DNA from: Vicingaceae bacterium
Lineage (GTDB): Bacteria; Bacteroidota; Bacteroidia; Flavobacteriales_E; Vicingaceae
Assembly: GCA_026003395.1 (NCBI GenBank)
Contig: BPHE01000005.1
Coordinates: forward strand, 1 to 64,000
Length of the DNA: 64,000 nucleotides
Direction of reading: 5' to 3'
Positions within the stretch are counted from its first letter, which is position 1, and every line of letters starts with the position of its first letter. Shown one piece after another: positions 1,491 to 43,177 of the stretch. The position numbers and the translations under genes are program-made. The notes below the pieces were generated by a model, which did no database searches, was not told where the DNA came from, and was given only the letters and a program-made list of their open reading frames with translations.

Positions 1491-1504
1491 AACATATTTG
1501 TTTT

Positions 1505-1715
1505 TACAAATATACATTAAATTTTCAAACTTCACTCAGGCAAACAAAGTCCGCAGCTGCCCGTGCTTCATAAAACATTATCTTTGCTGCAAAAAATTTA
1601 TTAAAAATTAATCTTATAAAAAGAAAAAATCAATTAAAGTATACATACCGGATGTGCAAAAATTTGCATAAAATTTTTCAACCTAAATACATTCGGAAAG
1701 GAAAAATTATACAAT
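1505..1715 (-). repeat. intergenic repeat, copy 1, upstream of the T9SS cargo gene
   Basis: A non-coding block of about 210 bases matches 2297-2510 with scattered substitutions and small indels. Shared blocks include the stretches around CCGCAGC, GCCCGTGC, ATTATCTTTGCTGCAAAAAA and AAATACATTC. Each copy lies directly upstream of a minus-strand gene. Read on the minus strand, each starts with a TAnnTTTG element (TATATTTG here, TACATTTG in copy 2) 15-30 bases before the start codon, which matches the Bacteroidota -7 promoter consensus. On the plus strand both copies also contain TATCTTTG. The rest of the gap (1716-1900) shows nothing I recognise. Confidence 0.6.
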
Positions 1716-32385: not shown

Positions 32386-32478
32386 TTCACTCCCCCCACA
32401 CGCTGTCAATCACCCGTTTAATCTTCTCCTCGTAGGTTTTCACCATCTCCCGCAGGGTGTTGTTCAACTTCAGCTCGG
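32386..32478 (-). pseudogene. remnant of an hsdS 3' end
   Basis: Bases 32386-32456 are identical over 71 bases to the end of the hsdS gene (35875-35945), including its stop codon. The next roughly 22 bases (to about 32478) are similar but diverged. Read in the hsdS frame it encodes ELKLNNTLREMVKTYEEKIK and then RVIDSVWGE and stop; the complete gene has AERKVIDSLREM at the equivalent place. So this is the tail of a different hsdS allele, left beyond the SIR2-herA pair. It forms a direct repeat bracketing that pair, with a 3489-base offset. Confidence 0.9.
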
Positions 32479-34557
32479 ATGCTCATCATTATCTTTTCTT
32501 TCCTGCCAATCGTTGGCAATTTTTTCCCATTCAACGCTTCTTTCTTCTTTGTTGGTCCAAACATCCCAGAATTCAGGATCTTTTGATTTTGGTCTATGGC
32601 CTTCAGATAATTCATTCATCTCTACTAAAATTGGAATGGGTGTTGCCCAACCTAATAAAATTGCCTTACGAGAAGGTAAAACGGATAATTCATTAAGAAT
32701 CCCTCCCATTGTATCTGGCACCAATTTTTTTACCATTTCTTGATCTCTATCGCTTACAATGCGATGTAGTAAAAATGTATTGCATTGTGATAAGACTGTT
32801 TGCGATAGTTCTGAAGGTCTTTGTGAAGCTAAAACTAAACCAACACCAAATTTTCTTCCTTCTTTTGATATCTTTTCGAATATTTGAGTACATAATCGCT
32901 GAGCAGAAATATTATCATCATCCGTCTCATATCTTTTAATCAAATTATGGGCTTCATCCACTACTAAAACAGTTGGCAAGGTTTTATCATTTTCTTTTTT
33001 ATACCTATGATGGGATTCAAAAATAATACGAGCCATTACTGACACGACGAGATAAAGAATTTCGGAGGGTAAAAGCGAAAGATCAATTACTGTTATGGAA
33101 GGGTTATTGACATTATCCCCAATATAGTCATTTAACCATTGTTGTAATGTTAGTTCTTCTGCATTTTCACTATTAATGACGGATGCTATTCTTTTATCGG
33201 TAAATAAACTTTTTACACGCATTAAAAAGAAATCAAGATACTGTTGTTGGTTTGCTTCCTGAGATAATCTCTCTATATGGGCCAGGAAATCCTCGTTCTT
33301 GAAATATACCGGAGAATCTTCATCAGGACCTTCATAAGGTGTTAGTTTACCAATATCTTTCTCAGATTCTTCTAATATTCGTAAAAGCTGATTTACTTCC
33401 TCTAAAGAAAAAGCAGGGAAATATCCTTTATCATTTTTGGGTTTTGAATTAAAAATATCATTCAATTTTTTATGTAAGTCGCTGTAGATTTTATTGTAGT
33501 TTTCATCTTGTAATTTTTCATTGAAAGTTTCTAAAGATCTTTTAATGCTTTCAAGAAATTCCCCATAATTCTGTTTACCAGGGAATTGAGATAATTTAGC
33601 GCCATCTTTCTGAAAATTAATCAAACTAATTTTTAAACTTGTAAGAAAATTTTTAAACAAAATATTAATATTTTCTTCCTTTGATACTTCTGCGCTTTTT
33701 ATTTCCCTTAAAGCCCTTCTTAATATTGGCCTTTGCGTTTTTGCACTTGCCTGAGCAATAGAAGCCCATTCCCAGCTATTCCACATCCAGGATGGAACTT
33801 TAAGCTGTTTGAAATTTTCATCAACTCTAATCTTAACTGAATATCTTTTAACATTACCTAATTCCTTAAAGCATTCACCATATTCTCCATTTGGATCAAG
33901 TATGATAAAACGAGCATTAACGTTTTTATTTTCTTTATTATTTTCTTTTGTTTCCTTTTTTGCCGACTCGATAGACCACCTTACCAGACCGGCTACAGAA
34001 CAGGATTTTCCGCTGCCAGTATTCCCTAAAATGGCAAGATGCCTCCCAAATAATTTATCCGGGTCAATAAATACTGGAGCGTTGGCAGCGAGTGGTGAAT
34101 TGCCTATTTTTACTTTAGCATTACTATCTTTGTTTTGAACGATTGCTTTTAACTGTTCTTGACTCGGAATGATAACAATATCACCTACGGAGGGATAACT
34201 ATAAACCCCTCTTTCAATTTCATAACCATTTTCCTTTTCTTTTAGAATTCCAATGGGAGAAAGCGAAAGTTTTCTTAATGGGAAAGGTAAATCAACCAGA
34301 TCAAAATCTTTGTACCCTTTTCTCTTTGGATAGGCAGAATATTCAATACCTATCCAGGTTATCATTCCCACTAATGCGCCAGACTCATTAGGAATGAGAA
34401 GAAAACCATTGATTTTTGGGAATTGTTGAGGTATTCCGGTATTTAATGAAGTACTTAAAGGAGCATCAATTTCAAGAAGCACTTTAATTTCTTTTGGAGA
34501 AACAAATTCCACAGTTCCAACTGTTGTGTGCCTAATTTTTTCAAAATTGTTACTCAT
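32470..34557 (-). CDS. HerA-family ATPase of a SIR2-HerA defence pair
   Basis: The 695-residue protein is a HerA/FtsK-type hexameric DNA translocase. It has an N-terminal HAS-barrel-like domain (about 1-165), Walker A in LGNTGSGKSCSVAG at about 178-190, a long helical insert (about 250-430) and Walker B in VLVVDEAHNLI near 540. KEGRKFGVGLVLASQRPSEL is the sensor block. In SIR2-HerA antiphage systems (called Nezha in one study) the HerA ring assembles with SIR2 and controls its NAD hydrolysis. The final codons CCG AGC TGA align with hsdS-derived sequence, so the native end may have been replaced. SIR2 lies 12 bases upstream. Confidence 0.9.
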   Translation of the reverse strand: MSNNFEKIRHTTVGTVEFVSPKEIKVLLEIDAPLSTSLNTGIPQQFPKINGFLLIPNESGALVGMITWIGIEYSAYPKRKGYKDFDLVDLPFPLRKLSLSPIGILKEKENGYEIERGVYSYPSVGDIVIIPSQEQLKAIVQNKDSNAKVKIGNSPLAANAPVFIDPDKLFGRHLAILGNTGSGKSCSVAGLVRWSIESAKKETKENNKENKNVNARFIILDPNGEYGECFKELGNVKRYSVKIRVDENFKQLKVPSWMWNSWEWASIAQASAKTQRPILRRALREIKSAEVSKEENINILFKNFLTSLKISLINFQKDGAKLSQFPGKQNYGEFLESIKRSLETFNEKLQDENYNKIYSDLHKKLNDIFNSKPKNDKGYFPAFSLEEVNQLLRILEESEKDIGKLTPYEGPDEDSPVYFKNEDFLAHIERLSQEANQQQYLDFFLMRVKSLFTDKRIASVINSENAEELTLQQWLNDYIGDNVNNPSITVIDLSLLPSEILYLVVSVMARIIFESHHRYKKENDKTLPTVLVVDEAHNLIKRYETDDDNISAQRLCTQIFEKISKEGRKFGVGLVLASQRPSELSQTVLSQCNTFLLHRIVSDRDQEMVKKLVPDTMGGILNELSVLPSRKAILLGWATPIPILVEMNELSEGHRPKSKDPEFWDVWTNKEERSVEWEKIANDWQERKDNDEHPS

Positions 34558-34569
34558 TGTCTTTTCCAG

Positions 34570-35847
34570 CTATACAGTTACATTATTATCTTGATTCTCA
34601 TTAGTTACATTACCTGATTTTCTTTTCTCTAATATTTTTGCCTGTCTATCGGTTATCCTATCAATAGCAGGTTTAGGTAAATAATAGTTCGTCAGGTTAT
34701 GAATATCTGCCAATTCTTTCCCTATTAATAAAGTTAACTGAGATTCATTACATCTTTCGATAAAATTCTGAATCCTATTATTTGCTAAATCATAAGAAAT
34801 GATCACCAAATGAGTCGAAGGAATCGTTAGCATATCTTTAATAATTCTATTTATGTGAGAATCTCCAAATCCATAACCATAGGTAACCAACACGGAATTA
34901 GGCCTACAAATAGCAGTAGAAAAATCGCGAAATAATTCAGAATATGGGAAAAAACTGGTTTCTATGGCTTTGGCAGAATTTGGATAAATAACCACTCGAT
35001 CATAAGGGTTGTCAAAATATTTATCATCAACTTCAGATCCAAACGGCAATGGGTTTTTAACAATTTGTCCGTTTTCAAACTGCCAGTCAATAGAACCGTG
35101 TAACTTAGTATAACGAACAACACCTTCTACATATCTTGGTTCACCTCTGATGCCGGGAGGATTGTAATGATAATCCAGATCTACCCTATGAAACCTCATA
35201 ATTGGTTTAAGCTTTCCAATAAATCGATCTAAAGTAAGTATGCCTGCCTCATCTAACCCGAATTCAATAAATCTATCGTAGTTTGTCGTAAAAATATTCA
35301 ATCTATCTCTTGTCGCAGTTCTTGTTGAAAAGCTCATGAGAAATTTTTCAAGTAATAATAATGAATTTTTCTTCTTAATTTCGACAAAAAATTGATTTTC
35401 GTTTTTTATTACTAAATTTAATAATTCTTGCAATTTCTTATTAATTTCTTTTTTAAGCTGTTTAGATTTTTTACTTTTTTTCTGAATTTCCAATCCTTTG
35501 AGAAGCTCAATAGATATTCTAATATCATCTTCAAAATTAGCTTCTCCTCTTCCCATGTGATTTGCTTCTTCGGATGCTTTTTGCTTGATTAAATCTCTGT
35601 AAGTTCCTTCAAATTCAATTCTTGGCATCATCGAGTTTTTACCTGTTAATGCAATAGGCAAACCACTGCCAACAAGCAGAGAGAGGTGTTCGCTCTGGAA
35701 AACAGCTGTCAACCAGGGTTCAATTTTTTCACGAATTTTTTGTCTGTTAAATTCGGTTTCTTTTTTGTACTCATCTGAGTCGACATCAATTTGTTCATTT
35801 GAAATAAACAAAATGTTTTCTTTGCTAAAGTCAATTTTATTTTCCAT
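34570..35847 (-). CDS. SIR2-family NAD-hydrolysing defence protein
   Basis: With the ATG at 35847 the product has 425 residues. The SIR2 fold marks are LLVGSGLP at 57-64 for NAD binding, TTNYDRFIE at 188-196 and TKLHGSIDW at 248-255, whose His250 is the expected catalytic residue. YGYGFGDSHINRII closes the domain. Members of this group deplete NAD+ on phage infection to abort it; here the partner is HerA encoded directly downstream. An upstream in-frame start at 35898 would lie inside hsdS and adds no conserved sequence. The start is 28 bases past the hsdS stop, so it can share the hsd transcript. Confidence 0.88.
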   Translation of the reverse strand: MENKIDFSKENILFISNEQIDVDSDEYKKETEFNRQKIREKIEPWLTAVFQSEHLSLLVGSGLPIALTGKNSMMPRIEFEGTYRDLIKQKASEEANHMGRGEANFEDDIRISIELLKGLEIQKKSKKSKQLKKEINKKLQELLNLVIKNENQFFVEIKKKNSLLLLEKFLMSFSTRTATRDRLNIFTTNYDRFIEFGLDEAGILTLDRFIGKLKPIMRFHRVDLDYHYNPPGIRGEPRYVEGVVRYTKLHGSIDWQFENGQIVKNPLPFGSEVDDKYFDNPYDRVVIYPNSAKAIETSFFPYSELFRDFSTAICRPNSVLVTYGYGFGDSHINRIIKDMLTIPSTHLVIISYDLANNRIQNFIERCNESQLTLLIGKELADIHNLTNYYLPKPAIDRITDRQAKILEKRKSGNVTNENQDNNVTV

Positions 35848-35875
35848 AGTTATCTCTTTTCTTTCTTTTATTACT

Positions 35876-37081
35876 TCACTCCCCCCACACGCTGTCAATC
35901 ACCCGTTTAATCTTCTCCTCGTAGGTTTTCACCATCTCCCGCAGGCTGTCTATCACCTTCCGCTCGGCTTCGATTTTATCGACAATACGCTGCTGGACTT
36001 CAAGGGGCGGAAGGGGGATTATTAAATTTGCCACATCATTAGTATTTATACTGGGATATGCTCCTTTGCCCATTTTAATTGTCATTTGTTTTACAGTTGT
36101 CTCAGAAAAAATACAAGTATAAAGATATTCAGGAATTATGTTTTCTTTACTTCTTAATACAGCGAAACCTGTTGAAGCGATTGATTTTTTTGGTAATTCT
36201 TTAAGTAGTGCAAAAGCCTTTAAATTTGGACGAACAGTTGATAATAAAATATCATTTTCTTTTATTATTCTTCTTGCACGGCTCGGGGCATTTTTAGTCC
36301 AAATTTTGTTTTCAAACGATATTTTTCCTGTTCCATTCTCTACAGACGATATGTCAATATAAACAATTTCAGATTCACCAAACAAATCATATGGATCGGC
36401 GGATTCAGGATTTATCTTACACACCTCCCCAAACCTCACCATCGGCCACCCTTCGGCAAGTTCTTCCTGCTTTTCGGGGTGCTCGGCAAGGTAGGTTTTG
36501 AGTTCTTCTTCCAGGTAGGTTTCTACATCAGGCTTCCAGGCATCTATCACCTGCCTGCAGCCGTCGATAAGCTTCTGATAGCCTTCTATCTCTGCCACTA
36601 TCTCCTGCTGCACTTCAAGAGGTGGGAGGGGGATTTGGAACTCATATAAAATTTTTGAGTTTAAGTTATTTATATTAACACCACTAATTTGAGTTCTTAA
36701 ATATACATTAAACTTAGAATTATTTAAATTTAAAAATAGATATTTTGAGTTTAGAATCTCATTATTTAAAGTTCTGATAGCTCCCATAAAACCGCCAAAA
36801 TAATAATCAATATCATTGTCAACGAATGCAACTTTTCCAATATGCTCTTTACTACCACTTGCTGAAACAGATAAAAATATCACCTTTTTTTAACTTCTTA
36901 TTTTCATTTAGATTTACTTTTTTAGATATTTGTTCTAACTTCATCAAAATTCAAGGTGCCATCTAAATTGATATTATTTGCCCTTAAAACAGGATAGCCA
37001 TTTTCTTTCAACTTCATCTTCTTTTGAATACGTTATTCCCCTTATCAATTCACACACCTCCCCCAGCTTCACCATCGGCCA
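35876..37081 (-). pseudogene. hsdS: type I specificity region HsdS, fused to HsdM, three frameshifts
   Basis: HsdS recognises the DNA target. It has two target-recognition domains, each opening with a repeat (WPMVKLGEVCEL from 37081, WPMVRFGEVCKI near 36460) and ending with IPLPPLEVQQ and a long helix. The first domain is broken three times within about 135 bases (37006-37008, 36929-36931, 36873-36877). Dropping one base at each restores EVEENGYPVLRANN, RTISKKVNLNEN and KKGDILSVSASG. No stop separates it from HsdM, so the intact product is probably one HsdM-HsdS polypeptide of about 865 residues, though the Met at 37075 could restart translation. The conserved helices are visibly richer in G+C than the recognition domains. 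Confidence 0.85.
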
Positions 37082-38482
37082 TTTCTGGTGTTTGCGTTTT
37101 TCTACCACCCGGTATCTATCGCCGGTGAGGTTGTATTCGCCGTTTTCGGCAAGTTTTTCTTTCTTTACCAGCAGGGCAGAGCAGGGTTTGTCTTCTGGCT
37201 TAAATTCATCCGCTTTGCCATTTTTTACCTTTTCTATATATTCATGGATAACCGTGAGGGCATCGGGCAGGTCGTTTTTATCAATCGGCCGGCGCTGGGC
37301 ACCGAGGTCAAAGCCGTCGTTTTCTATCTTTATGAACAGAATGCTATCGGTCTTTCCCGCAAGTGCTTTATCCATCAACAGGATTGAGGTTTTCACGCCT
37401 GAGTAGGGCTGAAAAACTCCGGCGGGTAGCGAGACCACCGCATACAGATAATTTTCCACCAGCATCTTGCGCAATTGCTTGTAAGCATTGGCACTCTGAA
37501 AGATGATGCCTTCGGGGACAATCACCGCAGCCCTTCCGGTGGGCGTGAGATGCTCGGCGATGTAATCGACAAAAAGCACTTCGCTACGTTTGCTCTGTAC
37601 GCTGAATCTTTTGTGCGGTTTGATACCTCCCTTTGGGGTCATAAAGGGTGGATTGGCAAGGATGACATCGGCATATTCGTTCCATCGGTCTTCGCTGGTC
37701 AAGGTGTCGTACTCGTATATCTGAGGGTTTACAAAGCCGTGCAGATACATATTGACAAGCGAAAGTCGCACCATATCGGGCGAAATGTCGTAGCCCTTGA
37801 AATTGGCAAGCAGTTTTTTCTTTTCTTCGGTAGTGAGCAGATCTCCTCTTCCATTACCGTTTTGTGAACGATATTTTTCGGAAGTGTTTTCGCGAATGAT
37901 GTATTTATATGCCGAAATTAAAAATCCGGCTGTGCCACAGGCAGGATCAAGGATGAGTTCGTTTTTCTTCGGGCTAACAATTTCAACCATAAAATCGATG
38001 ATATGGCGTGGGGTGCGAAATTGCCCGGCATCGCCCTGACTGCCCAGCACCAGCAGCAGATACTCAAAGGCATCGCCCAGACGCTCGGAATGGTCGTAGA
38101 TGAATTCGTTGATGGTTTTCAGAAAGAGTTTGAGCGTTTCGGGGTCGCGGTATGGCAGATAGGCATTCTTGAAGATATTGCGGAATAGCTCGGGCAGGTT
38201 TGGGTTCTGACTCATCCGTGTGATGGCCTCTGCATAGAGATTGAGCATTTCATGGCCACCCAGACGGGGGTTAAAAATATTGCTCCAGCTATATTTTTCA
38301 TACTCTCCGACAAAAAAGAAACGTTTGCCGCCCATCTCAACGGACTCTCTGTCCATGTCGTCCATAAATTTGTAGATGAGGGCAATGGTAATCTGTTCAA
38401 CCTGACTTTTGGGATCAGGTACCTTCCCTACCAGTATATCCCGGGCGGTGTCGATTCTTCTTTTGGTTTCAGCATCAAGCAT
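36974..38482 (-). CDS. hsdM: type I restriction-modification N6-adenine methyltransferase HsdM
   Basis: HsdM methylates adenine with S-adenosylmethionine. It has an N-terminal helical domain (DILVGKVPDPKSQVEQITIA), SAM motif I in LDPACGTAGFLIS at 178-190 and the catalytic NPPF at 277-280. The last 35 residues before the present stop already belong to the HsdS region and run out of frame. Compared with hsdR and the SIR2-herA pair, this gene is plainly richer in G+C, a sign that it arrived separately or was exchanged. It is separated from hsdR by a transposase and a palindrome array, so it probably needs its own promoter. Confidence 0.93.
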   Translation of the reverse strand: MLDAETKRRIDTARDILVGKVPDPKSQVEQITIALIYKFMDDMDRESVEMGGKRFFFVGEYEKYSWSNIFNPRLGGHEMLNLYAEAITRMSQNPNLPELFRNIFKNAYLPYRDPETLKLFLKTINEFIYDHSERLGDAFEYLLLVLGSQGDAGQFRTPRHIIDFMVEIVSPKKNELILDPACGTAGFLISAYKYIIRENTSEKYRSQNGNGRGDLLTTEEKKKLLANFKGYDISPDMVRLSLVNMYLHGFVNPQIYEYDTLTSEDRWNEYADVILANPPFMTPKGGIKPHKRFSVQSKRSEVLFVDYIAEHLTPTGRAAVIVPEGIIFQSANAYKQLRKMLVENYLYAVVSLPAGVFQPYSGVKTSILLMDKALAGKTDSILFIKIENDGFDLGAQRRPIDKNDLPDALTVIHEYIEKVKNGKADEFKPEDKPCSALLVKKEKLAENGEYNLTGDRYRVVEKRKHQKWPMVKLGEVCELIRGITYSKEDEVERKWLSCFKGK

Positions 38483-38583
38483 GATAATTCGTTTTTGTTA
38501 TGAAAAAAATGTATCGAAATTTTTAATTTTTTTCGACATTTCAAAATAAAGGTGTAGAAAATTTTTGTTTTTTTCGACATGGA
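38483..38583 (-). promoter_or_regulatory. hsdM leader with inverted and direct repeats of a TTTCGACAT motif
   Basis: The leader is nearly all A and T. ATGTATCGAAA at 38509-38519 and TTTCGACAT at 38531-38539 form an imperfect inverted repeat. A further direct copy TTTCGACAT is at 38572-38580, 41 bases on. The placement just before the hsdM start would suit an operator. No controller gene is visible, so this is only a suggestion. Confidence 0.35.
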
Positions 38584-40179
38584 TAACATAATGCCGTCCC
38601 TAACGGGACTAGCGTAACATCGCTCCTGACGGGTTGCTACCATAATGTCGCCCCTTCGGGGCTGCTATATTATCGTTTCTGATTTTTGTTTCTGGCAAAA
38701 TGTCGTTTCCCATTTCTACCATAATGTCGCCCCTACGGGGCTGGCTTTCATAAACACAACCATTTTAGCTCCGTAGGAGCGAAATTATGGTAACTCAATG
38801 CTCAATGCTACCATAATGTCGCCCCTACGGGGCTAGCTAAATGTCGTTTCACATTTCTACCAAAATGTCGTCCCTATGGGGCTGCTATATTATCGTTTCT
38901 GATTTTTGTTTCTGGCAAAATGTCGTTTTCCATTTCTACCATAATGTCGCCCCTTCGGGGCTATTTATTAAACACAACCATTTTAGCTCCGTAGGAGCGA
39001 GATTATGGTAACACTTAGCTTATCACGTCCCATTTTAGCTCCGTAGGAGCGAAATTATGGTAACTCAATGCTACCATATTGTCGCCCCTATGGGGCTACC
39101 ATATTATCGTTTCTGATTTCTGTTTCTACCAAAATGTCGTCCCTAACGGGACTAGCGTAACATCGCTCCTGACGGGTTGCTACCATAATGTCGTCCCTTG
39201 CGGGACTTCCATATTATTGTTTCTGATTTTTATTTCTACCAAAATGTCGCCCCTATGGGGCTACCATATTATCGTTTCTGATTTCTGTTTCTACCAAAAT
39301 GTCGTCCCTAACGGGACTAGCGTAACATCGCTCCTGTTGGGTTGCTACCATAATATCGCCCCTACGGGGCTGGCAAAATGTCTTTTCTGATTTTGATTTT
39401 TACCAAAATGCCGCCCCTTCGGGGCTTTCATAAACACAACCATTTTAGCTCCGTAGGATATAGATCTTCACGTCCAAATTTAGCTCCGTAGGAGCGAGAT
39501 TATGGTAACAGAATCTCATCACCCACATCTTTAGCTCCGTAGGAGCGGCCTTATGGAAACTCAATGCTACCATATTGTCGCCCCTATGGGGCTACCATAT
39601 TATCGTTTCTGATTTCTGTTTCTACCAAAATGCCGTCCCTAACGGGACTAGCGTAACATCGCTCCTGACGGGTTGCTACCATAATGTCGTCCCTATGGGG
39701 CTGCCATATCATTGTTTCTGATTTTTATTTCTACCAAAATGTCGCCCCTATGGGGCTGCTATATTATCGTTTCTGATTTTTGTTTCTACCATAATATCGC
39801 CCCATCGGGGCTGGCATTTATCGTTTCTGATTTCTGTTTCTACCAAAATGTCGCCCCTTCGGGGCTATTTATTAAACACAACCATTTTAGCTCCGTAGGA
39901 GCGAGATTATGGTAACACTTAGCTTATCACGTCCCATTTTAGCTCCGTAGGAGCGAAATTATGGTAACATATAGCTCATCACCCACATCTTTAGCTCCGT
40001 GGGAGCGGCCTTATGGTAAATCAATGCTGACATATTGCCGCCCCTTCGGGGCTTTCATAAACACAACCATTTTAGCTCCGTAGGATATAGATCTTCACGT
40101 CCAAATTTAGCTCCGTAGGAGCGAGATTATGGTAACAGAATCTCATCACCCACATCTTTAGCTCCGTAGGAGCGGCCTT
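38584..40179. repeat. REP-like palindrome array, about 36 units in both orientations
   Basis: The basic unit reads ACCATAATGTCGCCCCTACG followed by GGGCT, with a hairpin core GCCCC-loop-GGGGC. Variants have CGTCCC/GGGAC cores or a shorter ATCGCTCCTGACGGGT form. Inverted units read TTTTAGCTCCGTAGGAGCGA and end in ATTATGGTAAC, the reverse complement of the same plan with CTCC/GGAG stems. I count about 36 units over 1.6 kb, spaced by recurring linkers such as TATTATCGTTTCTGATTT. Larger segments are duplicated inside the array: 39409-39552 equals 40036-40179 exactly (144 bases). It abuts the 3' end of the transposase gene, as REP arrays mobilised by a TnpA_REP (RAYT) enzyme do. Confidence 0.9.
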
Positions 40180-40186
40180 GTGAACA

Positions 40187-40651
40187 TTATATATCATAAA
40201 ATTCAAAAACAAATTCATTTTTATACTCAATTTCAAACCTTCTCAACAATTCCAAATATTCTTCCCTAAATGTCTTATTCTTGTGATGCTTTTCTTGATT
40301 AATGATATAATTTATCACAGTGTCTCGTTGTGACCGAGAATACGAAAATGCCCCATAGCCCTCCTGCCAATTAAATTTACCCCTCAAAAATCCCTGTTCA
40401 TTTATCCACTTTGATGAACTTGCTTTTACCATCCTCATCAAATCCGATATTTTTATATCCGGTTTTAATTCAAAAAACACATGAACATGATCCTTCCATC
40501 CACCAACGGCTAATGGAAAAACATTATTCTTTTTTAGGATACCATAAATATACCTAAACAAATCATCCCTAAAATGATCTGCCAAAATATTTTCACGTCC
40601 TTTTACTGCAAATACACAATGAATATTTATTTGAGAATAAGTATTTGCCAT
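40187..40651 (-). CDS. REP-associated tyrosine transposase (Y1, IS200-like)
   Basis: The 154-residue HUH single-strand endonuclease has the metal-binding HVH at His55-His57 (DHVHVFFEL), a downstream EGYGAFSYS with the likely catalytic Tyr104, and the QIN(I/Y)H-type start SQINIHCVFAVKG. IS200/RAYT enzymes cut and join single-stranded DNA next to hairpins. The adjoining array of palindromes makes a TnpA_REP role more likely than an autonomous IS200. It starts 3 bases after hsdR stops, on the same strand, so it is translated as part of the hsd operon. Confidence 0.88.
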   Translation of the reverse strand: MANTYSQINIHCVFAVKGRENILADHFRDDLFRYIYGILKKNNVFPLAVGGWKDHVHVFFELKPDIKISDLMRMVKASSSKWINEQGFLRGKFNWQEGYGAFSYSRSQRDTVINYIINQEKHHKNKTFREEYLELLRRFEIEYKNEFVFEFYDI

Positions 40652-40654
40652 AGA

Positions 40655-43177
40655 TTAAGCCACAATTTTATTTAATGGTACATTGTCCTTGATATATTCC
40701 GGTATTATTTTTCTAAGTTCAGGTGGTAATTTTTTAAAGGCCTCACCGTAAGGCGATAAATTAAGTATGGCAAAATTACCACTATCAATAATTTGTCTGA
40801 ATTCTGAATCAAGAATATAAGCTTTAAAAACAGTTTTTGCATATTCAAAATATTCTTCTTTGGGCAAATAGCGACTGTCGAATTTATCAAACTCTTCTTC
40901 CAAAATTTCATCCCTTGTTTTAAAATATGGAATTATACCAAGTATTTTTTCGATAATTTCTTTCATCGAGACCTGCCGGTCAATATTAATTGCTTTATTC
41001 AGTTTTTCGAGTGTAAAAAATTCCTCCGGTTTGTTCAAAACATGTGATTCGAGAAATTCGAGCAATTCGTTCCATCGTTCTGCTTCAACATAGGATTTCA
41101 CTTCCGGGTGATTCAAAATTTTTTGCTCAAATTTTTGAAAATACATTCGGTCTATTTTCATGCCTTCATATCCTATGGATTTTTCCGATAAGGCCATCAA
41201 CGGGTCGAGTTGGGCTGTTTGGTATATCTCAATTGAAGGTATAATAATAGATTCCTTGTCTTTTCCACTTTTAACGGGCGGTAACTTTATCACTTCGTCG
41301 TAATTATATTTTTCTTCAAAATATTCGCAATTTGCAAAAAAGTCAAACATTTTGAAGTGAATTTTCTCTATCTTGCCAAATTCATTTTTGATTTTTGGGT
41401 CGGTAATTTCATTTGAAAAATTGTGTTTTCGGGTACCTCGACCTTTTATCTGTACAAATTCGGTGGGAGAGAAAATTGGGCGCATCAAACATAGGTTAAG
41501 AATATCGGGGCAATCATATCCTGTGGTCATCATACCAACCGTGACACATACACGGGTTTTGCTAGTGTTATAATAAGGTAAAAAATTGGCTGATCCACAC
41601 AGATTGTTATTTGTAAAATTAATCGTCAATTGTTGAGCATCCGGTATACTCGAAGTTACCTGCACAGCGAAATCGGATTGATATTTGCCGGGAAACATTT
41701 CATCAGCCAATTGATTCAAGATTTGTGTGATTTTTGCCGCATGATTTTGAGAAACACAAAAAACGATTGTTTTGCCTATCTCACCGCTGACAGGATCGCG
41801 AAGAGCATTTTGCATAAACACTTTGCAAAAGGTTCTGTTGGTGTCTTCAGAGAAAAAATTTTTTTCGAAATCTCTTTGATCAAAACTATTTTGTTGGTCT
41901 TCGCCATCTTCATTGGTAGTTGTAACAATATAACCTTGATCCGACAATAATTGTGTGGTGATTTCTGTGCGAGCATCTGCCACAATGGGATTGACCAGAT
42001 AACCGTCTTTTACCCCATCGATCAATGAATAACGAAAGGTTGGTTCGCTGTTTTCGCAACCAAAGGTCTTATAGGTATCCAACAATAATCTTCTCTCCAG
42101 CTGACGGGGGTCATTTTCACCAAGATCAGAGATATCAATATTTTTGAGGTAATTTTTGGGTGTAGCGGTAAGTCCTAATTTATAGCCAATAAAATATTCA
42201 AATACCGCCCTGCTGTTACCTCCAATACTACGGTGGGCTTCATCAGATATAACCAGGTCAAAATCATCCGGTGCAAAGATTCTTTTATATCTATTTTTAG
42301 AAAGAAAAGTTTGAATTGTAGAGACCACAATTTCGGCTTTTTGCCAATCATCTCTGTTTTCTTTATAAATAACGGTTGTGTAATCATTTTTTAAATAATC
42401 TCTGAAAGCTTTGTATGCTTGATTTTCCAACTCAAGTCTATCTACCAAAAACAAAACACGCCGGGCATTACCTGTCCGGAGAAACAACTTGATAACAGCA
42501 GCAGATACAAGTGTTTTACCTGTGCCTGTAGCCATTTCAAAAAGAAAGCGGTCTTTACCTTCCTTTACGGCATTTTGAATAGATCGAACTGCTTCCAATT
42601 GGTAATTTCTTAAAAAACGAAGTTTATATTGTGCAATATATTGAGAGCGAGTATTTTCGTTAATGTAAGACGGGTCTTTGAAATAATCCGGTTTCTGGGT
42701 GAGTACGATATAATCTTCATTCACTTCTTCATTGACAAGCCGATTTTTGTCGGGAACAAACCCGGCATAACCTTTCAATGCTTCGAGAGTAGGAAAAGAT
42801 TTAATTACTTGCGGATTGCCACGTTCAATGTCCCATAGATAATGAATATTGCCATTAGAAAGAATAACAAAACGACATTTGAGCGTCTGTGCATATCGTC
42901 TTGCCTGCTCTTTACCAAACAGAGGATTTTTATTTTCTGCTTTGGCTTCGAGAACAGCCAGTGGAAAACCGTTATTATCTAAAAATAAAAAATCAACATA
43001 ACCATTTTTTGTATGTTCAAAATCGTCTCCAAATGCGTTTAGTTGTTGCTCGGTAATTTTAATATTGTTTTCTAAAAGTACATTGGCTTTTCCATTTTCC
43101 GAATCAATTAACCTCCATCCTGCCTCTTCCAGAAAGCGGTTAATTTTTATCCGGGCCTGAGCTTCTTTATTTGACAT
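40655..43177 (-). CDS. hsdR: type I restriction endonuclease subunit HsdR
   Basis: HsdR moves along and cuts DNA not methylated by HsdM. It has the N-terminal PD-(D/E)xK nuclease with Asp62 and EAK at 77-79, then SF2 helicase motifs: ATGTGKT at 216-222, DEAH at 312-315, LTATPKNY and IKGRGTRKH near 580. At 840 residues it is at the short end of the family and lacks a long C-terminal extension, like the Bacteroidota HsdR of fused-MS systems. Base composition resembles the housekeeping genes, unlike hsdM. It is the first gene of the defence region; a 334-base A+T-rich gap lies upstream. Confidence 0.93.
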   Translation of the reverse strand: MSNKEAQARIKINRFLEEAGWRLIDSENGKANVLLENNIKITEQQLNAFGDDFEHTKNGYVDFLFLDNNGFPLAVLEAKAENKNPLFGKEQARRYAQTLKCRFVILSNGNIHYLWDIERGNPQVIKSFPTLEALKGYAGFVPDKNRLVNEEVNEDYIVLTQKPDYFKDPSYINENTRSQYIAQYKLRFLRNYQLEAVRSIQNAVKEGKDRFLFEMATGTGKTLVSAAVIKLFLRTGNARRVLFLVDRLELENQAYKAFRDYLKNDYTTVIYKENRDDWQKAEIVVSTIQTFLSKNRYKRIFAPDDFDLVISDEAHRSIGGNSRAVFEYFIGYKLGLTATPKNYLKNIDISDLGENDPRQLERRLLLDTYKTFGCENSEPTFRYSLIDGVKDGYLVNPIVADARTEITTQLLSDQGYIVTTTNEDGEDQQNSFDQRDFEKNFFSEDTNRTFCKVFMQNALRDPVSGEIGKTIVFCVSQNHAAKITQILNQLADEMFPGKYQSDFAVQVTSSIPDAQQLTINFTNNNLCGSANFLPYYNTSKTRVCVTVGMMTTGYDCPDILNLCLMRPIFSPTEFVQIKGRGTRKHNFSNEITDPKIKNEFGKIEKIHFKMFDFFANCEYFEEKYNYDEVIKLPPVKSGKDKESIIIPSIEIYQTAQLDPLMALSEKSIGYEGMKIDRMYFQKFEQKILNHPEVKSYVEAERWNELLEFLESHVLNKPEEFFTLEKLNKAINIDRQVSMKEIIEKILGIIPYFKTRDEILEEEFDKFDSRYLPKEEYFEYAKTVFKAYILDSEFRQIIDSGNFAILNLSPYGEAFKKLPPELRKIIPEYIKDNVPLNKIVA

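What the first reader, a model, noticed from the sequence alone, without database searches (positions are those of the whole stretch)
32457..32490. herA appears to borrow its stop codon from an hsdS remnant
The final herA codons (CCG AGC TGA) align with the hsdS-derived stretch that reads CCGAGCTGAAG in this remnant and CCGAGCGGAAG in the complete gene. The herA stop thus lies inside hsdS-like sequence, so the recombination joint is at or before the last two codons of herA. The native C-terminus of HerA may be shortened or altered.
Basis: partly seen in the sequence, partly recalled or inferred. Interest (0 to 1): 0.5.

Follow-up and report, generated by a model that had tools for sequence, protein, structure and literature searches.

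The report
Swappable defence cassettes behind hsdMS
A two-gene anti-phage system sits directly behind a restriction-modification gene whose last 93 bases are repeated on the far side, so that the second gene ends inside the repeat; related bacteria carry quite different defence genes in the same kind of repeat-flanked slot.

Summary
The herA stop (32472-32470, minus strand) lies inside a 93-bp, 94 %-identical second copy of the hsdS 3' end (32478-32386; native copy 35967-35875). The joint maps to 32479-32485, so only about the last three HerA residues (HPS) are hsdS-derived. HerA itself is not damaged: its conserved core ends at W684-Q685, seven homologues carry dissimilar tails of 5-16 residues after it, and none ends in HPS.

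The repeat is not a one-off. Of seven related hsdMS loci, this one included, four have a second hsdS tail right behind a defence cassette, and each cassette differs: SIR2-HerA (here), pAgo+SIR2, a Hachiman-like pair, a partly Ppl-like gene. A lone tail precedes a SPARTA-type pair in another genome. Only the terminal hsdS region is repeated. Tails do not follow their genes: against one relative, synonymous codon identity is 42 % in the methylase but 88 % in the tail.

Best reading: the hsdS tail is a homology arm by which compact defence cassettes are inserted and exchanged. The architecture is shown; the mechanism is inferred. Defences embedded in type I loci are known; I saw no report of hsdS-tail direct repeats flanking them.

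The parts
32386..32478 (-). second copy of the hsdS 3' end (CR2 tail), right-hand repeat
   Evidence: 93.5 % identity to 35875-35967, E 1.4e-35
32470..32472 (-). herA stop codon TGA, inside the repeat
32479..32485 (-). interval holding the herA/hsdS joint
   Evidence: herA similarity to L014 ends at 32486; hsdS similarity starts at 32478
32470..34557 (-). herA, 695 aa
   Evidence: PADLOC HerA PDLC04098 4.1e-276; DUF87; relatives 64-80 % identical
34570..35847 (-). sir2; the ATG at 35847-35845 is my choice of start (the ORF list gives a longer TTG start at 35898)
   Evidence: PADLOC SIR2 PDLC04079 6.4e-167, searched as 34570-35844; start region
35875..35967 (-). native hsdS 3' end, left-hand repeat
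35876..38482 (-). hsdMS: a single HsdM-HsdS frame of 871 aa in G393; here broken in the first target-recognition domain into ORFs 36974-38482 and 35876-36883
   Evidence: 72 % identity, 7 stops inside
40655..43177 (-). hsdR, 840 aa
   Evidence: PADLOC REase_I, ResIII and HSDR_N

Best explanation
The sir2-herA pair is one of several interchangeable, gene-tight defence cassettes that sit directly behind the stop codon of an hsdMS gene and are flanked on the far side by a second copy of the conserved hsdS 3' end (CR2). Shown: the repeat, the joint in the last codons of herA, the borrowed stop, different cassettes in the same kind of slot in three other genomes, and tails whose similarity does not follow that of their genes. 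Inferred: the conserved tail works as a homology arm. A donor fragment or circle carrying cassette plus hsdS tail recombines with the tail of a resident hsdMS by a single or double crossover. That leaves hsdS tail, cassette, tail; it keeps the hsdMS end intact; and it lets a later cassette replace the first, or lets it be lost by recombination between the direct repeats. The variable target-recognition domain upstream offers no homology, which would explain why only the tail is repeated. For HerA the joint merely replaced a few residues of a variable tail.
For: Second tail behind a cassette in 4 of 7 related hsdMS loci, with different cassettes: SIR2-HerA; pAgo + Aga_SIR2 (PDLC02385 6.7e-110, PDLC02414 4e-88); HamA/HamB-like pair (PDC-M23A 1.1e-89, PDC-M23B E 0, HamB 2.6e-61); a gene with a partial Ppl match (2e-27, mostly its last 115 residues). 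Scanning the whole of each hsdMS against the DNA behind it finds only terminal segments. The second tail begins between inside the last gene (here) and about 50 nt behind its stop. A lone tail stands 236 nt before a TIR/pAgo pair in G066 (8.8e-144, 9.7e-201). Tails do not follow their genes: own vs G577 DNA identity is 66 % in the methylase, 47-48 % in the TRDs, 92 % in the tail, and among codons for the same residue 127/305 are identical in the methylase against 37/42 in the tail, so protein constraint alone does not explain it. G393's second tail matches the own native tail (80/92) better than G393's native tail (74/92). The own two copies are identical after position 22 of 93.
Against: No excision, circle or exchange was observed; one genome per species was available. 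Only 4 cases, and searches were confined to one phylum. 0 of 16 more distant hsdMS loci have a second tail although 13 of these 16 have a same-strand ORF within about 60 nt behind hsdMS (6 of the 16 contigs end within 1.7-4.8 kb), so genes can sit there without it. G615 has a following gene and no second tail. The left edge of the second tail differs from case to case, and G244's copy lacks its 3' part. Upstream of the core, the own second tail resembles G393's second tail (letters GCATC, AAGTTGA) no better overall than it resembles the own native tail (79/92 against 83/92).
Confidence: 0.6

Rival explanations
1. The second tail is what is left of a second, tandem hsdS gene; the cassettes inserted into or replaced most of that gene.
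For: Second hsdS copies near type I loci occur: 991 of 22,107 hsdS genes had an inverted repeat within 30 kb in PMC7394358 (passages), though that survey counted inverted, not direct, repeats. A decayed gene would also explain the variable left edges.
Against: In 4 of 4 cases only sequence after the second target-recognition domain is found behind the cassette. G393's second tail is closer to another genome's tail than to its own. The lone tail in G066 has no hsdMS match within the 12 kb fetched.
Confidence: 0.2
2. Independent illegitimate joints: each cassette arrived by its own non-homologous event that happened to duplicate the hsdS end; the tail has no role in exchange.
For: The left edge of the second tail differs in every case.
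Against: Four different cassettes with the same kind of duplicated segment in 7 loci is much coincidence; tail similarity does not follow the genes.
Confidence: 0.12
3. Site-specific integration: the hsdS 3' end is an attachment site of an integrase and is restored on insertion, as at tRNA gene ends.
For: A gene 3' end is kept and duplicated in direct orientation, as in integrase-made insertions (recalled).
Against: No integrase in the cassettes: only sir2 and herA among ORFs of 120 aa or more here, two genes in G393 and G244, one in G477; no fixed left edge. An integrase elsewhere in the genome was not looked for.
Confidence: 0.05
4. Assembly artefact of a draft genome.
For: The window's genome is in 33 contigs with 3.27 % estimated contamination, and its hsdMS has frameshifts.
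Against: The same architecture occurs in G244, listed with one contig, in G477 and in G393.
Confidence: 0.03

Closest known systems
Defence genes embedded in type I restriction-modification loci (PrrC in ecoprrI; TgvAB, PMC11411939; DarTG2 between hsdS and hsdR, PMC12255303)
   Same: A complete small defence system sits beside hsdS in a type I locus; [quoted passage not shown]
   Different: Here the cassette lies after hsdMS at the end of the locus (hsdR is upstream) and is flanked by a direct repeat of the hsdS 3' end; the passages that I saw describe no such repeat.
SIR2-HerA anti-phage system
   Same: Adjacent sir2 and herA genes matching PADLOC SIR2 and HerA profiles.
   Different: The last few HerA residues come from hsdS-derived DNA; the placement is unusual, the type is not.
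Duplicated or phase-variable hsdS loci (PMC7394358, passages; pneumococcal tvr, PMC6265443, abstract start in the listing)
   Same: Repeats of hsdS sequence near a type I locus and recombination between hsdS copies.
   Different: Those exchange target-recognition domains; here only the terminal conserved region is repeated, and a defence cassette lies between the copies.

Membership tests
SIR2-HerA system | adjacent sir2 and herA genes | tested here: met
   34570-35847 and 32470-34557 on one strand, 12 nt apart; profiles 6.4e-167 and 4.1e-276
SIR2-HerA system | HerA conserved core complete to its C-terminal end | tested here: met
   profile matched 1-684 of 686; invariant columns through Q685
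SIR2-HerA system | anti-phage or NADase activity | not testable with these tools
   needs experiment
Type I restriction-modification system | hsdR, hsdM and hsdS present | tested here: met
Type I restriction-modification system | intact reading frames | tested here: not met
   hsdMS has 7 stops inside when aligned to the G393 fusion; the first TRD is spread over three frames; decay and sequencing error cannot be told apart
Defence system embedded in a type I locus | defence genes lie between genes of the type I system | tested here: inconclusive
   the cassette lies between hsdMS and a 93-bp hsdS fragment, not between two whole hsd genes
Duplicated-hsdS phase-variable locus | a second hsdS with its own target-recognition domains | tested here: not met
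   only 92-93 bp of tail; a scan of whole hsdMS against 5,875 bases behind it finds nothing else
Integrase-made insertion at a gene 3' end | integrase gene within the inserted element | tested here: not met
   only sir2 and herA among ORFs of 120 aa or more between the repeats

The most novel reading that the evidence does not exclude
The hsdMS 3' tail is a recombination docking site: defence cassettes move among bacteria without any integrase of their own, as tail-bearing fragments or circles that insert by homologous recombination behind whichever hsdMS allele shares the tail, and leave by recombination between the two tails. A restriction-modification gene would then double as a plug socket for other immune systems, integron-like in effect but driven by homologous recombination.
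Probability: 0.35. Interest if true: 0.75.

Novelty: new variant of a known kind. Interest (0 to 1): 0.5.

Why it matters
How small chromosomal defence systems without mobility genes of their own are gained and swapped is an open question; the abstract of PMC12829572 says that the mobilization of chromosomally encoded defence genes remains poorly understood (listing; passages). A short, conserved, repeated hsdS tail gives a concrete and testable route, and a sequence tag (hsdS tail, cassette, hsdS tail) with which further cassettes, unknown ones included, could be found behind hsdMS genes.

Tried and rejected
A damaged HerA: rejected, its variable tail is of ordinary length. Chance repeat: rejected. 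Hits in G222 and G312 (23 and 21 exact bases) and G778 (39 bases) have no hsdMS match in the stretches fetched around them and were dropped as chance. The idea that the own and G393 second tails form a lineage of their own was not kept. HerA relatives in viral contigs: 21 stretches matched a pattern, none confirmed; in phage records 2 partial matches. A degenerate pattern of the tail in viral contigs: 0 matches. hsdMS in plasmids at E <= 1e-150: 55 records, none covering 80 % of the query. The hsdS tail in the window's own family: only the window's own genome, 1 of 46, so the locus was probably acquired. The hsdS tail of the Methylocella plasmid locus L084, where SIR2-HerA also lies in an hsd locus, is not repeated within the 14 kb fetched. 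No structure prediction was run.

The tail DNA searches overlap in the genomes drawn and are not to be added up; tallies with chance hits and the own genome included: 6 of 395 (93-base query), 6 of 294, 5 of 245, 1 of 123, 1 of 46, 1 of 6, 2 of 98, 4 of 325 (146-base query in these).

Paper searches: (no paper). Listings are capped (for example 25 of 31, 20 of 92, 20 of 44, 15 of 25, 15 of 614), and no paper was read whole.

Full report
What was claimed and what is there. The herA gene (32470-34557, minus strand) ends CAT CCG AGC TGA, and from CCG onwards the DNA is a second copy of the hsdS 3' end. The two copies (32386-32478 and 35875-35967) are 93 bp long, 93.5 % identical, E 1.4e-35. All six differences fall in the first 22 positions; the other 71 are identical (chance of such clustering 9.8e-5). 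That points to recombination or conversion within the repeat rather than even decay.

Where the joint is. A scan of the collection of 84,980 genomes returned five close HerA relatives: L010 80 %, L011 and L012 73 %, L014 71 %, L013 64 % identical. At DNA level L014 aligns to 32486, L010 to 32494 and L011 to 32495. The hsdS match starts at 32478. The joint is therefore in 32479-32485; the last residues HPS, or nearly all of them, are hsdS-derived. At the other end L014 aligns to 35862, 14 nt after the hsdS stop (35878-35876). The inserted piece is thus cut very close to its two genes.

Effect on HerA. Six aligned proteins share W684 and Q685 as the last invariant residues. After them come 10 residues here and 11, 8, 12, 15 and 16 in L010, L011, L012, L014 and L013, without common sequence; two plasmid HerA proteins end differently again. 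The PADLOC profile match ends at residue 685. Of eight solved chains matched, three end 2, 3 and 11 residues past the equivalent of residues 685-686, whereas 8wiv has about 90 more. I conclude that the joint changed a variable tail and most likely nothing that matters; that is inference, not an activity test. Read in herA's frame, the native hsdS tail would have stopped the protein two codons later anyway.

The wider pattern. Searches with the hsdS tail in a draw of the phylum and in the class of G393 led to six further loci with a related hsdMS and two lone tails. In G393 the order is hsdR, a transposase ORF, hsdMS (871 aa, one frame), pAgo-like 675 aa, SIR2-like 422 aa, then a 107-bp hsdS tail 86 % identical to ours. 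In G244, listed with one contig, hsdMS is followed by a HamA-like and a HamB-like gene (PADLOC candidate PDC-M23A/B; the Pfam HamA score of 21.8 is under its cut-off of 25) and then a truncated tail. In G477 hsdMS is followed by an 881-aa gene with a partial Ppl match and no Pfam match, then a 123-bp tail. G577 has hsdMS with no cassette (the next gene is convergent) and no second tail. G615 has one unidentified gene and no second tail. In G272 two genes (PDC-M30A/B) follow and the contig ends, so a second tail could not be seen. In G066 a lone tail stands before a TIR/pAgo pair (SPARTA type) with no hsdMS match in the 12 kb fetched. In G477 a further lone tail stands behind a nucleotidyltransferase gene (PDC-S09, 1e-33) and a frame-broken HepT-like stretch; the HepT label is my reading, not a profile hit.

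Controls. Scanning each of the seven hsdMS genes against the DNA behind it (8,000 bases; 5,875 for the window, 1,992 for G272) found repeats in 4 of 7, of the terminal region alone. A protein search found hsdMS relatives at E <= 1e-120 in 20 of 395 genomes. Four of these are named above (own, G393, G244, G272). The other 16 loci had no second tail of their own kind, though six of those contigs end 1.7-4.8 kb behind hsdMS. Thirteen of these 16 have a same-strand ORF within about 60 nt behind hsdMS (counted), so the slot seems to be a general one, while the repeat was seen only in the close subfamily.

Evidence for recombination at the tail. In an alignment of seven hsdMS genes, own against G577 is 66 % identical in the methylase, 47 % and 48 % in the two target-recognition domains, 83 % in CR1 and 92 % in the tail; own against G615 is 72 % in the methylase but 68 % in the tail (I set the region borders by the conserved blocks). 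To see whether protein constraint explains this, codons for the same residue were compared: own against G577, 127 of 305 are identical in the methylase (42 %) and 37 of 42 in the tail (88 %); against G393, 68 % and 80 %; G244, 68 % and 87 %; G477, 57 % and 78 %. The tail is the more similar part in 4 of 4 comparisons, and by far so for G577. G393's second tail is closer to our native tail (80/92) than to its own (74/92).

How it most likely works. The conserved hsdS tail is the stretch next to the cassette that differing hsdMS alleles share. A cassette that carries a tail can recombine into any such locus without harming the hsdMS end, can be replaced by another, and can be lost between the repeats. 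This is inference; nothing here shows a movement. A decayed second hsdS is the main rival.

Known and new. Defence genes inside type I loci are known: PrrC (PMC12707154, passages), TgvAB (PMC11411939, passages), DarTG2 between hsdS and hsdR with the remark that this place may be a recombination hotspot (PMC12255303, passages). Work by Payne and colleagues on embedded defences I saw only as cited there. Repeats of hsdS used for phase variation are known (PMC7394358, passages; PMC6265443, abstract start). I saw no paper on hsdS-tail direct repeats flanking exchangeable defence cassettes in the capped listings (one search gave none); the library holds open-licence papers only.

Noticed in passing
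window about 36860-37000: The hsdMS gene is split over three frames in its first target-recognition domain (7 stops when aligned to the G393 fusion); either a decayed gene or sequencing errors.
   Followed up: partly
window 38528-40182 and 40187-40651: An array of repeated units with inverted partners (12 copies of one 58-nt family) beside an IS200-like Y1 transposase, between hsdR and hsdM; resembles a REP-associated transposase with its repeats (label recalled). A 154-aa ORF of closely similar sequence stands at the same place in G393.
   Followed up: partly
L041 11998-12420: A 140-aa ORF between hsdR and hsdMS in G615 that looks like another IS200-like transposase by eye; not scanned.
   Followed up: no
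L010 1-5979; L084: The closest SIR2-HerA relative is followed directly by an HsdR of a different type I family, and a Methylocella plasmid has hsdM-hsdS upstream of SIR2-HerA: SIR2-HerA recurs in type I loci.
   Followed up: partly
L038 14189-15310: A 373-aa gene, Fic-like by eye (not scanned), between hsdR and hsdMS in G477: perhaps a second variable slot of this locus.
   Followed up: no
window 36023-36392: The second target-recognition domain of this hsdMS is 89 % identical to that of G244 although the first is 49 %, an ordinary sign of domain exchange in hsdS.
   Followed up: no
window 1495-1713 and 2285-2508: The only other direct self-repeat of the window at E <= 1e-6 outside the 38400-40250 array, 79 % identical.
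   Followed up: no
L041 8688-9413 (-); L072 4433-5194 (+); L076 11317-11940 (-); L077 3947-4675 (+): Similar genes of 207-253 aa (by eye) directly behind hsdMS in four genomes; the L041 one has no PADLOC or Pfam match: a candidate unknown defence gene in the same slot.
   Followed up: no
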